NCBI RefSeq assembly: GCF_945901735.1
Contig: NZ_CAMDLM010000003.1
Coordinates: 1-64,000 of the forward strand
Direction of reading: 5' to 3'
Source: Limnohabitans sp. Rim8
GTDB lineage: Bacteria > Pseudomonadota > Gammaproteobacteria > Burkholderiales > Burkholderiaceae_C
DNA length: 64,000 bases
Positions 27,939 to 43,095 of this stretch are shown one piece after another (the stretch's first letter is position 1; each line of letters begins with the position of its first letter). Under the pieces are notes generated by a model. That model was given only the letters and a program-made list of their open reading frames with translations. It was not told the origin of the DNA and did no database searches. A program made the translations under genes and the position numbers.

Positions 27939-28331
27939 ATGAAATTGACACCCTGCCCCTGCGGCCGCACCACTGGCAAAGGCCAAGCACTGAGCTTGGA
28001 CACTTGTTGCGGCCCTTACCACGCCAACCAGAACGCGCCCGATGCCGAAAGCCTGATGCGCTCGCGCTACAGCGCTTTTGTGCGGGGCGATGTGCCTTAT
28101 CTGCTGGCCACCTGGCACAGCAGCCAAAGACCCGCTGAGCTGACGCTCGAAGCAGGGGCCAAGTGGCTGGGTCTGGAAATCAAGCAGCACCACGTCACCG
28201 GTGCTGAGACGGCCGAGGTCGAATTCGTCGCCCGTTATCGGGTGGGCGGCAAAGCGGTGCGGCAACACGAACGCAGCCGTTTTGTGCGCGAATCCGATGG
28301 CTGGTTTTATGTGGCGGGTGATGTGCTGTGA
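27939..28331 (+). CDS. ychJ: YchJ-family protein (SEC-C-like zinc motif)
   Basis: The 130-aa protein begins LTPCPCGRTTGK with paired cysteines of the SEC-C type, then CCGPYHANQNAPDAESLMRSRYSAFVRGD and a conserved C-terminus RQHERSRFVRESDGWFYVAGD. The function of the family is unknown. A 69-bp imperfect copy of its 3' end is found at 43027-43095, so this gene marks the left boundary of the catabolic island. Confidence 0.92.
   Translation: MKLTPCPCGRTTGKGQALSLDTCCGPYHANQNAPDAESLMRSRYSAFVRGDVPYLLATWHSSQRPAELTLEAGAKWLGLEIKQHHVTGAETAEVEFVARYRVGGKAVRQHERSRFVRESDGWFYVAGDVL
28263..28331 (+). repeat. Left direct repeat of the island (3' end of ychJ)
   Basis: Its first 29 bases, starting CAACACGAACGCAGCCG, are identical to 43027-43055. 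Over the full 69 bases to the stop codon I count 59 matches and no gaps. Confidence 0.85.
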
Positions 28332-28395
28332 AGACGCCATCCAGACCACGCTCACTTTGAATAGATACGTCGTCCATCTTAAAGGGCTGGAGCGT

Positions 28396-29430
28396 TCAAC
28401 GCCGCCTGTAGGCATTGCAGGGCTGGCCTGTCCAGCGTTTGAATGCGCGTTGAAAGCTGGGGCTGTCGCTGAAGCCAAGCTCGCTGGCCAGTTGAACCAG
28501 TGAGACCTTGGAGGACGAAAGTCGGGAGATGGCCAGGTCCCGTCTCAGGTCGTCCTTGAGCCACTGCAAGGATGTGTGTTCAGCCGTCAGGTGACGTTGC
28601 AGACTGGCCGGAGAGGTGTGGAGTTTGTCCGCAACCTCTTCCAGTGTGAGCCATCGGGGGTAACTGAGCATCAGGCAGTTGCGCACTTTCTGCCCGATCA
28701 AGCCAAAGTGGCGCGGTGGTGAAATGATCTGGGTATAGGCGTCTGTCAGGAAGGTGCGCAGTGCAGGTTCGTCCCGGCTCACAGGGGTGTCCAACTTGGA
28801 GATGTCAAACCAGAAGCCGAATGCGATTTGGTCGTAACGCCGATCTGCCGGGAAAATGAACTGGTACAACTCGTGGTGACCGGGATCGGCATAGGCGAAA
28901 TCGAAATGCCGAATCGGCAGGGGTGAGTTCAGGAGCCACGCAGCAAGGCGCCACATCACACGCACCATGGTTTCTTGCGCGAACACAGGGATATCACGCC
29001 CCGGGTTGGCAGGCGCCATGTGCAAGCCCGCTTCCTGGTGGTTGATCTGCAAGGAAAAAACAATGTCGTCTTGCAGCAGGTTGAGGGCCGAACTCATGCG
29101 CTTGAGTGCACGCCGAAGGTCGGGCGCTGACAGTCCTTCCCGCGCGGTCAACGCGAAGCTGCCGGGCTTGAAAGGTCGGGAGAACAGCCCAACGCACTCG
29201 TCTTTCAAGCCGTGCATCAAGGCATAAAAAAGCGCCACGTACTGAATGGGGGTGACCCCCGGGTCACCTGGGGTTCGCAGGGCCTTGGGGTCGACCCCTG
29301 CCTGACGTAAATAGCCATCCACATCGACATCCATGCCCTCCAAGCCTGAAAGCAGGCCGAACACGAAAATGGGGGCAATGTAAGTCCCCGGGTTTTCCCG
29401 AGGTTTGATGTGTTTGAGGTCTTTTGCCAT
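28396..29430 (-). CDS. AraC-family transcriptional regulator (arabinose-binding-like N domain)
   Basis: The 344-aa protein has an N-terminal ligand domain (about 20-215) and a C-terminal AraC helix-turn-helix pair: LTLEEVADKLHTSPASLQRHL and LVQLASELGFSDSPSFQRAFKRWTG. It diverges from the thiolase operon 113 nt away and is the likely ligand-responsive activator of the island. A second AraC protein of similar build sits at 43798-44841. Confidence 0.9.
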   Translation of the reverse strand: MAKDLKHIKPRENPGTYIAPIFVFGLLSGLEGMDVDVDGYLRQAGVDPKALRTPGDPGVTPIQYVALFYALMHGLKDECVGLFSRPFKPGSFALTAREGLSAPDLRRALKRMSSALNLLQDDIVFSLQINHQEAGLHMAPANPGRDIPVFAQETMVRVMWRLAAWLLNSPLPIRHFDFAYADPGHHELYQFIFPADRRYDQIAFGFWFDISKLDTPVSRDEPALRTFLTDAYTQIISPPRHFGLIGQKVRNCLMLSYPRWLTLEEVADKLHTSPASLQRHLTAEHTSLQWLKDDLRRDLAISRLSSSKVSLVQLASELGFSDSPSFQRAFKRWTGQPCNAYRRR

Positions 29431-29489
29431 TGTCTTGAGGTGACAAGCTATCGCGACGATACGGCTCTGAGTCTAGCATTTGGTTCAAA

Positions 29490-41484: not shown

Positions 41485-42977
41485 CAGCCATGTCCAACCA
41501 CCACCCCACCCTCATTGATCTGCTGGATCGCAATGCCCGCTCGTATCAGGATCACCCTGCGTTGATTTTCGAAGGCCGCAGTGACACACATGCAGCTTTG
41601 CATAAAGCCGTGCAAATTCAGGCGTCAGCCTTGCATGCTGCGGGGGTCAGGCGTGGCGATCGCGTGTTGTTGCTGAGCGGCAACCGGCCCGAGGTCTTGG
41701 TGCTGTTGGGCGCGGTGGCCTGGCTTGGGGCCATGCTGGTGCCGCTCAACCTTCGCCTGTCGTCCGCTGAAATGGCCCAGCAAGCGCGTGATGCCCGTCC
41801 CGCCCTGGTCATTGTTGACGCAGCGTGTTCCGCATTGATGACAGCGGCATGGCCAGAGGGCATGGCCGGGGTGACCATTGAAATGATGGGCGAGCCCGTC
41901 AATGGGTCTTGGGTCTGTGTCGGCCAATCGCAGCAAGCGCCTGTGCCGCGTCAAGATGCCCCGGATCTGGGCGTCATCATGCTTTACACGGCGGCAGTGG
42001 ACGGTCATGCGCGAGGCGCGGTTTTGTCTCAGGCGCAATTGCGCGCATCGGCCATTCAAACGGGTGGTGCCTGGGCTTTGGGCGATCACGACCGTTGGTT
42101 GGGTGTGCTGCCGTTGTTCCATGCGGCCGGAATTGGCTTGGCGCTTGCCATGTTGGAGGCGGGCGGTGCTTGCGTGATCTTGCCGCGTTTCGATCCTGTG
42201 GCCGCAGTGGTCTCCGTGGCGCGCCACCGCATCACCGTGTGCGCCACCTTTGCCCCGATGCTGGGCGCCCTGCTGGATGCGGCAACGCAAAACCCGGGCG
42301 GTGAGGCCTCACTGGCCAGTTTGCGCGTGTGCATGGGGCTAGAGCCCCCTGAGGTGATCGGCCGCTTGGCCACGCTGTGCCCTGATGCGAAATTTTGGTC
42401 GGCCTACGGGCAGGCCGAGGTGTCCAGCATGGTGTGCATAGGCGTACAAAGCGAGCGACCGGGTGCCGCCGGTCGGCCGATGGCGCCGACCGAAGTGCGT
42501 GTGCAGGACGCAACGGGGCGGGCTTTGGGGACAGGTTTGGAAGGCGAGATCGCCGTCCGGGGGCCGACCGTGTTTCTGGGTTATTGGGAGCCTGAGACCC
42601 AACGCCCTTTCAAATCAGCCGACCCTTGGCACCGTACAGGCGATCTTGGGCGCATCGACGAGGACGGTTGGCTTTGGTTTACCGGGCGGTCAGCGCACAA
42701 ACAACTCATCAAGACGGGTGGGGAAAATGTCTATCCGGCCGAGGTGGAGCAGGTCTTACTCGAACACCCTGCCGTGGCCGAGGCCTTTGTTTTCGGCAAG
42801 CAAGACGAAAAGTGGGGAGAGGCGGTGCACGCAGTTTGTGCTCTGAAAGTCGGATCGAGCGTTGCAGCGACAGAACTGCTGAATTTCCTGGATGCGCGCA
42901 TCGCCCGTTACAAAAAGCCGCAAAGTCTGGTCTTCCTGCCTTCGCCCCTTGAGCGCAGCACCAAAATCTCAACATGA
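41481..42977 (+). CDS. AMP-dependent acyl-CoA ligase with variant P-loop and shortened C-terminus
   Basis: The 498-aa protein has the adenylating fold (WSAYGQAEVSSMV, HRTGDLGRIDEDGWLWFTGR, KTGGENVYPAEVEQVLLEHP). The phosphate-binding loop reads MLYTAAVDGHARGAVLSQ instead of TSGTTGxPKG. The C-terminus ends PSPLERSTKIST, a few residues after where the catalytic Lys is expected, so about 10-15 residues are missing. It is the last gene of the island and stops 49 nt before the ychJ fragment. Activity is uncertain. Confidence 0.8.
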   Translation: MTAMSNHHPTLIDLLDRNARSYQDHPALIFEGRSDTHAALHKAVQIQASALHAAGVRRGDRVLLLSGNRPEVLVLLGAVAWLGAMLVPLNLRLSSAEMAQQARDARPALVIVDAACSALMTAAWPEGMAGVTIEMMGEPVNGSWVCVGQSQQAPVPRQDAPDLGVIMLYTAAVDGHARGAVLSQAQLRASAIQTGGAWALGDHDRWLGVLPLFHAAGIGLALAMLEAGGACVILPRFDPVAAVVSVARHRITVCATFAPMLGALLDAATQNPGGEASLASLRVCMGLEPPEVIGRLATLCPDAKFWSAYGQAEVSSMVCIGVQSERPGAAGRPMAPTEVRVQDATGRALGTGLEGEIAVRGPTVFLGYWEPETQRPFKSADPWHRTGDLGRIDEDGWLWFTGRSAHKQLIKTGGENVYPAEVEQVLLEHPAVAEAFVFGKQDEKWGEAVHAVCALKVGSSVAATELLNFLDARIARYKKPQSLVFLPSPLERSTKIST

Positions 42978-43026
42978 ACCATCCCGATGGGTCAACCATG
43001 CTGCGCTGAATAAGCCGCCTACTCAA

Positions 43027-43095
43027 CAACACGAACGCAGCCGTTTTGTGCGCGAGGACGGGCGCTGGTTTTATGTGGACGGCGATGAGCTGTGA
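43027..43095 (+). pseudogene. Detached 3' fragment of ychJ (right island repeat)
   Basis: The frame reads QHERSRFVREDGRWFYVDGDEL and stop, matching the last 22 residues of YchJ (27939-28331) closely. Upstream of the fragment the homology ends abruptly. It lies just after the truncated-looking acyl-CoA ligase and before the HAD phosphatase. It is either the original ychJ end displaced by an insertion or a second end brought in with the insert. Confidence 0.85.

What the first reader, a model, noticed from the sequence alone, without database searches (positions are those of the whole stretch)
28263..43095. 14.7-kb catabolic block bracketed by a duplicated ychJ 3' end
The last 69 bases of ychJ (28263-28331) recur at 43027-43095 in the same orientation: 29 identical bases at the start and, by my count, 59 of 69 matches overall. 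Everything between is one functional unit (regulator, beta-oxidation, transporter, ligases). The right fragment encodes only the last 22 residues of YchJ and has no gene start. This is the structure left when DNA inserts at, or recombines through, the 3' end of a gene. No integrase is present, so the mechanism may be homologous exchange or an insertion whose enzyme was lost.
Basis: partly seen in the sequence, partly recalled or inferred. Interest (0 to 1): 0.8.

Follow-up and report, generated by a model that had tools for sequence, protein, structure and literature searches.

The report
Catabolic gene block inserted at ychJ
In a bacterium that is likely a Limnohabitans, a 14.7-kb block of genes predicted to take up and break down branched fatty-acid-like compounds lies between the gene ychJ and the gene that directly follows ychJ in most relatives examined, bracketed by two copies of the end of ychJ; the copy that completes the gene likely arrived with the block and the stranded copy is likely the original end, which would make this an ordinary kind of gene acquisition with both scars still readable.

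Summary
In detail: 28263-28331 recurs at 43027-43095 with 59 of 69 matches, the first 29 exact, and nowhere else in the genome assembly. It marks a likely insertion. In 52 Limnohabitans-type loci, HAD follows ychJ directly in 39 and after a 400-460-base gap in 8; none of the 52 carries the block or a second ychJ end within the stretch held. L035 aligns across both flanks, the alignments overlapping only at the repeat: the empty site. The ychJ end is closer to the RIGHT fragment than to the intact gene's end in 51 of 53 loci, so the stranded fragment looks native and the intact gene's last ~40 bases foreign. The same operon occurs in 3 of 89 other genus genomes (SBP >=80%); in two of these it lies away from ychJ, in the third the contig is too short to tell. 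No PF00589 integrase on the contig, no tRNA in the window, no terminal inverted repeat, no GC break. I favour an enzyme-free single exchange in the shared ychJ end (compare PMC3240628); a lost integrase is the main rival. The operon's racemase gene has lost 257 codons in frame.

The parts
27939..28331 (+). ychJ, intact; likely chimeric, last ~40 bases foreign
   Evidence: PF17775; tail comparison
28263..28291 (+). left copy of the 29-base identical stretch; likely place of the exchange
   Evidence: 29/29 to 43027-43055; none of 53 relatives exceeds 28/29
28292..28331 (+). likely incoming ychJ tail, completing the gene
   Evidence: 24-35 of 40 to 52 relatives and 19 to the misaligned L083; 28-31 of 40 to the five loci with the most similar ychJ body; nearest-neighbour identity 87.5%, reached or undercut by 6 of 50 relatives
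28332..28395 (.). left junction spacer; past its first ~8 bases only matches of about 17-23 bases at E 0.03-0.1 in 90 genus genomes
28396..29430 (-). AraC-family regulator (Arabinose_bd + HTH)
29480..30733 (+). SCP2-thiolase-type lipid-transfer protein (start codon uncertain)
   Evidence: NF006102 684 bits, cut-off 436; PDB 6hsj SCP2-thiolase E 7e-133
30730..31170 (+). HadA-like / MFE-2 hydratase-2-like dehydratase
31186..31593 (+). HadB-like MaoC dehydratase
31617..32447 (+). SDR dehydrogenase
32452..33609 (+). acyl-CoA dehydrogenase
33606..33890 (+). 94-aa in-frame remnant of a 351-aa alpha-methylacyl-CoA racemase-like gene
   Evidence: full gene in G362
33887..34672 (+). LivG-type ATPase
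34669..36621 (+). acyl-CoA ligase (FadD type)
36488..37510 (+). LivH-type permease (start codon uncertain)
37507..38559 (+). LivM-type permease
38601..39833 (+). periplasmic substrate-binding protein (Peripla_BP_6)
39849..40652 (+). LivF-type ATPase
40690..41484 (+). enoyl-CoA hydratase/isomerase
41481..42977 (+). acyl-CoA synthetase
42989..43026 (.). right junction spacer, after homology to the G362 operon ends and before the ychJ fragment
   Evidence: only a 21-base match in one other of 90 genus genomes
43027..43095 (+). likely displaced native ychJ 3' end (22 codons and stop, no start)
43117..43776 (+). HAD-family phosphatase, usual right neighbour of ychJ

Best explanation
The 14.7-kb gene block is most likely an insertion between ychJ and the HAD gene, and it likely entered by a single exchange inside the shared 3' end of ychJ that gave the intact gene a foreign tail and left the native tail stranded on the far side. 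Shown: the repeat; the unoccupied arrangement in relatives; the closeness of the right fragment, and the distance of the left tail, to relatives' ychJ ends; no PF00589 integrase on the contig; the same operon at other places in two other genomes. Inferred: an incoming molecule from another Limnohabitans-type cell carried a short ychJ 3' end next to the AraC gene; it was probably joined end to end beyond the last ligase gene (43026/43027); a crossover in or just after the 29 identical bases then set everything between recipient ychJ body and recipient ychJ tail, so that no recipient base was lost. Predicted function of the cargo: uptake, CoA activation and beta-oxidation of an alpha-methyl-branched acyl compound, by enzyme types like those of the animal peroxisome (racemase, acyl-CoA dehydrogenase, hydratase 2, SDR, SCP2 thiolase); the racemase gene is broken here.
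For: Unoccupied site: 39 of 52 loci ychJ-HAD direct, 8 with a 400-460-base gap, 0 with the block or a second tail. L035 aligns to 22632-28333 (90.3%) and, without a gap, to 43027-45860 (90.0%), the two alignments overlapping in L035 only at the repeat. Right tail 37 of 40 to the nearest relatives and 20 of 21 in the following spacer to L035; left tail 30 of 40 to L035; 51 of 53 closer to right. The 29-base stretch is identical between the copies while none of 53 relatives matches it better than 28/29, as expected if both copies are the recipient's own. The left tail matches another lineage in 34 of 35 bases over 28302-28336 (G007). Operon away from ychJ in G362 and G396. PMC3240628 (passages): in E. 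coli, incoming DNA with one homologous stretch gave, in 56 of 60 clones tested, a PCR product for duplication of part of that stretch; the 14 sequenced were 109-950 bp; the authors explain them by single crossing-over with a circular molecule that had lost part of the stretch.
Against: Twenty-nine identical bases are few for RecA-type exchange, and 69 bp is below the 109-950 bp of PMC3240628. No donor with ychJ next to this operon was found. The left tail is only 40 bases, and a native tail that diverged quickly is not excluded. The ychJ body is itself a mosaic (best relative differs from bin to bin), so the left crossover could lie further upstream. Two loci are closer to the left tail (L045, and L083, which is poorly aligned). 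Whether the assembly is an isolate or a metagenome bin is unknown, and a joining error at the repeat cannot be excluded without reads, though 29 bases is shorter than a usual read.
Confidence: 0.55

Rival explanations
1. Site-specific integration by a tyrosine integrase: an element whose attachment site mimics the ychJ 3' end integrated there, its copy restoring the gene and the old end being displaced (attL left, attR right); the integrase and all other element genes were then lost.
For: The geometry is that of such elements (recalled): identical core of 29 bases, gene end restored on one side, old end displaced on the other, no recipient base lost. By eye the core holds a weak imperfect inverted repeat, not tested against chance.
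Against: None of the 7 PF00589 matches in the genome lies on this contig; the block's genes are assigned to catabolism, transport or regulation; no tRNA in the window. The insert is the operon with 64 and 49 bases of spacer, and the stranded fragment has kept its reading frame and relatives' sequence, which leaves little time for stripping an element down (inference). None of 52 relatives has a duplicated ychJ end. Not checked: integrases beside ychJ in relatives (the list was cut), serine recombinases and transposases genome-wide.
Confidence: 0.25
2. The structure was formed once in an unsampled lineage and moved into this genome whole by ordinary homologous replacement through both flanks; the repeat then tells of the first insertion only.
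For: ychJ is a mosaic among relatives, so this locus recombines; left tail and right flank resemble different lineages.
Against: No other genome was seen with the operon at ychJ: 0 of 80 ychJ loci in the stretch held and neither of the two other carriers whose contigs can tell; both flanks stay about 90% identical to L035 overall up to the repeat, though the last 190 bases of ychJ are lower.
Confidence: 0.15
3. Assembly artefact: chromosome and a separate operon-bearing molecule were joined at the 29-base repeat.
For: 66 contigs, origin of the assembly unknown.
Against: A wrong join at both ends needs a circular molecule with the same core, i.e. the integration intermediate itself; both junctions lie inside one contig; left and right tails differ, so they are not a collapsed repeat.
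Confidence: 0.05

Closest known systems
Truncated duplication by single crossing-over of incoming DNA (E. coli conjugation study, PMC3240628; passages read)
   Same: One homologous border, one non-homologous border, part of the homologous stretch duplicated, recipient sequence kept
   Different: There 109-950 bp duplicated in an experiment; here 69 bp with 29 identical in a natural genome, with 14.7 kb of cargo
Genomic islands and integrative elements inserted in the 3' end of a gene (recalled)
   Same: Gene end restored on one side, old end displaced on the other, direct repeat as core
   Different: No integrase found on the contig, no mobility gene in the block, no GC break; one search (ychJ with integration site with genomic island) found 0 papers; a wider literature search on such gene ends failed on its terms
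Peroxisomal-type beta-oxidation of alpha-methyl-branched acyl-CoA (racemase, MFE-2, SCP2 thiolase; pathway recalled)
   Same: Same set of enzyme types in the operon and its G362 relative
   Different: Bacterial gene block with LIV-type transporter and AraC regulator; substrate untested; racemase gene broken in this genome

Membership tests
Integrase-borne island in a gene 3' end | direct repeat with identical core; gene end restored, old end displaced | tested here: met
Integrase-borne island in a gene 3' end | unoccupied site in relatives | tested here: met
   39 of 52 direct, 8 of 52 with a 400-460-base gap, 5 other
Integrase-borne island in a gene 3' end | integrase or other mobility gene in the insert | tested here: not met
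   block genes assigned to catabolism, transport or regulation; PF00589 absent from contig C3
Integrase-borne island in a gene 3' end | atypical composition (usual, not required) | tested here: not met
   GC 60.2% against 59.5-62.6% in 41 segments outside; tetranucleotide distance only slightly raised
Homology-driven insertion with truncated duplication | one homologous border | tested here: met
   29/29 identical stretch at the ychJ end
Homology-driven insertion with truncated duplication | other border joins unrelated sequence | tested here: met
   similarity ends sharply at 43027
Homology-driven insertion with truncated duplication | 3-10 bp micro-homology at the illegitimate join (usual for HFIR) | tested here: inconclusive
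   donor sequence past 43026 unknown
Homology-driven insertion with truncated duplication | a donor with ychJ beside the operon | tested here: inconclusive
   not found among 80 ychJ loci or, by tail and SBP queries, 90 genus genomes; metagenome contigs not scanned
Peroxisomal-type branched-chain beta-oxidation set | SCP2 thiolase, hydratase-2-like, SDR, acyl-CoA dehydrogenase | tested here: met
Peroxisomal-type branched-chain beta-oxidation set | intact alpha-methylacyl-CoA racemase | tested here: not met
   94-aa remnant here, 351-aa gene in G362
Peroxisomal-type branched-chain beta-oxidation set | activity on a branched acyl-CoA | not testable with these tools
   needs enzyme assay

The most novel reading that the evidence does not exclude
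The 3' end of ychJ is a recurrent, integrase-free landing site in Limnohabitans: whole catabolic operons and other cargo (type VI secretion genes in L067 and look-alikes in L072, a 2.8-kb isochorismatase-bearing set in L042 and L084) enter the chromosome there by a single exchange at a conserved gene end, and the operon's other copy, beside a 1.25-kb duplicated BrkB/YihY gene in G362, is a second product of the same route.
Probability: 0.15. Interest if true: 0.6.

Novelty: new member of a known kind. Interest (0 to 1): 0.38.

Why it matters
It is an operon-sized acquisition caught with both scars readable: a likely foreign tail in the working gene and the likely native tail left over. It suggests how gene ends can be replaced unnoticed while metabolic islands enter without any visible mobile element, which bears on how freshwater Limnohabitans gain substrate-use genes. 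It also warns that the intact copy of a duplicated gene end need not be the native one.

Tried and rejected
Old tandem duplication of ychJ: rejected, none of 52 relatives has a second ychJ end. Transposon-type insertion: no inverted repeat of 7 bases or more between the insert ends, and 69 bp is too long for a target duplication (recalled rule). tRNA-linked island: no tRNA in the window. Foreign composition: no GC break, tetranucleotide distance slightly raised. Operon on plasmids or viral contigs: the SBP's plasmid matches (31 records) are all under 60% identity, none on viral contigs. Recent direct transfer between G362 and this genome: not supported; block 88.8% nucleotide and 75.5% third-position identity over 14 genes against 83.0% and 68.4% over 12 flank genes, of which two (53% and 70% protein identity) are poor orthologues and depress the flank value. 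Home-site test with G362: no exact direct repeat of 11 bases or more between the operon's flanks there; the stretch between BrkB and the region further right differs in the compared genomes. The MAFFT alignment of the racemase deletion failed; the deletion was read from blastn coordinates (about 5 window bases against about 776 in G362 between the matches) and the two protein lengths. The FadD search was swamped by paralogues (258 of 299 genomes) and replaced by the SBP. One search (AraC against plasmids) gave only matches under 60%. One search listed 120 of 443 SBP homologues, up to 95%, without context. One search (SBP against the PDB) gave one weak match. Papers: listings only for (36 led to PMC3240628, of which I saw passages); one search found none.
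Full report
Observation. The repeat is real: 59 of 69 bases between 28263-28331 and 43027-43095, the first 29 identical, a second exact run of 15, and only these two places in the 3.67-Mb assembly. All ten differences fall in the last 40 bases; under a uniform spread this has a probability of 0.0025, although the first 29 bases are also the more conserved part among relatives (90.2% against 82.4% mean pairwise identity).

Taxon. Genomes of the window's own genus g1 correspond to Limnohabitans records in the named collection; e.g. 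G362 has the contig length and ychJ position of Limnohabitans sp. WS1, NZ_NERU01000015.1, and G007 has the ychJ position of Limnohabitans sp. 2KL-51, NZ_NESJ01000017.1. The genus name is an inference from such matches.

Empty site. One search found 267 ychJ relatives in genome contigs and kept the best 80; I compared all 80 for the window's genes and 52 of them, L033-L084, in detail (two of the 52, L042 and L045, come from one MAG). HAD follows within 100 bases (6-82) in 39 of 52 and after 400-460 bases in 8, where the gap looks like a convergent VOC-type gene (name recalled, not tested). Five differ: L067 and L072 have other genes, among them a ClpB-type AAA protein and VipB of type VI secretion in L067 and look-alike ORFs in L072; L042 and L084 have a 2.8-kb insert with an isochorismatase-family gene (tested in L042); L083 has another gene. 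None of the 80 shows the block beside ychJ within the stretch held (up to 10 kb, some much shorter), and none of the 52 has a second ychJ end. L035 matches 22632-28333 at 90.3% and 43027-45860 at 90.0% with no gap in the latter; in L035 the two alignments overlap only at 10325-10395, the repeat. That is the unoccupied locus.

Which end is native. The tail of 53 relatives (L033-L085) is closer to the right fragment in 51 and to the left in 2 (L045 and the badly aligned L083); means 33.6 and 28.8 of 40. Rows are related, so this is not a count of independent events. The right tail reaches 37 of 40, and the spacer after it 20 of 21 with L035. The left tail's best match is 35 of 40 (L045); 6 of 50 relatives have a nearest neighbour as far or farther. 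Over 28302-28336 it matches G007 in 34 of 35 bases, including five past the stop codon. So the intact gene likely ends in a tail of another Limnohabitans-type lineage and the stranded fragment is likely the original. The ychJ body is a mosaic too (L035 best for 27939-28040, L054 for 28041-28140, others after; against L035 the last third of the body drops to 76%), so the exact left crossover is uncertain; that no relative matches the 29-base core better than 28/29 while the two copies are identical speaks for a crossover in or after it.

The cargo elsewhere. The SBP gene has a relative at 80% or more in 3 of the 89 other genus genomes: G362 97%, G031 88%, G396 80%; two more have 42-43%. DNA homology to G362 runs from 28403 to 42988. 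There the operon is on contig C1 and ychJ on C7; in G396 on C9 and C71; the G031 contig is too short to tell. In G362 the operon lies 42 bases from the second copy of a 1,254-bp segment with a BrkB/YihY gene (97% identical, copies 14.8 kb apart). More distant forms of the operon occur in the family (FadD 57% in G258, homology in pieces from 29561 to 41186).

Cargo function. Best PDB matches are SCP2-thiolase type 1 for the thiolase and alpha-methylacyl-CoA racemase for the CoA-transferase-family-III gene of G362; with hydratase-2-like MaoC proteins, an SDR and an acyl-CoA dehydrogenase this is the enzyme set of peroxisomal beta-oxidation of alpha-methyl-branched acyl-CoA (pathway recalled). 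The substrate is inferred, not tested. In this genome the racemase gene has shrunk from 351 to 94 codons in frame.

Mechanism. No PF00589 integrase on the contig (serine recombinases and transposases were not searched genome-wide), no tRNA in the window, no terminal inverted repeat, no GC break and only a slightly raised tetranucleotide distance. Passages of PMC3240628 report that incoming DNA with one homologous stretch in E. coli mostly produced truncated duplications of that stretch, explained by single crossing-over with a circular molecule that had lost part of it, whereas homology-facilitated illegitimate recombination generally deletes recipient DNA and inserts about 1 kb. Here nothing of the recipient is missing and the homologous end is duplicated in truncated form, so the first type fits better. 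The lost-integrase rival has the same geometry and cannot be excluded; against it stand the bare operon and the undecayed fragment.

Verdict. It is a clear natural case of a known kind of event.

Noticed in passing
33606-33890: In-frame loss of 257 codons from an alpha-methylacyl-CoA racemase-like gene inside the operon; the 94-aa remnant stays open between two genes.
   Followed up: partly
L155:8699-9944 and L149:3527-4778 (G362): A 1,254-bp segment with a BrkB/YihY gene is duplicated at 97%, copies 14.8 kb apart, the second copy 42 bases from the same operon.
   Followed up: partly
27848-27932, 22521-22626, 16794-16821: REP-like palindrome upstream of ychJ with further partial copies in the window and in relatives.
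   Followed up: no
L067:10378-20375 and L072:10393-20390: Type VI secretion genes (VipB and a ClpB-type AAA protein by Pfam in L067; look-alike ORFs in L072) lie downstream of ychJ, with no HAD gene in the stretch held.
   Followed up: partly
55001-62500: Most atypical tetranucleotide content of the window; holds a sodium:solute symporter, a TPR protein and a GMC oxidoreductase.
   Followed up: partly
43776-45156 and its counterpart in L040, L056, L058, L070, L075, L080: The gap between HAD and the next AraC gene varies from a few dozen bases to about 6.7 kb among relatives, so the whole stretch is variable.
   Followed up: no
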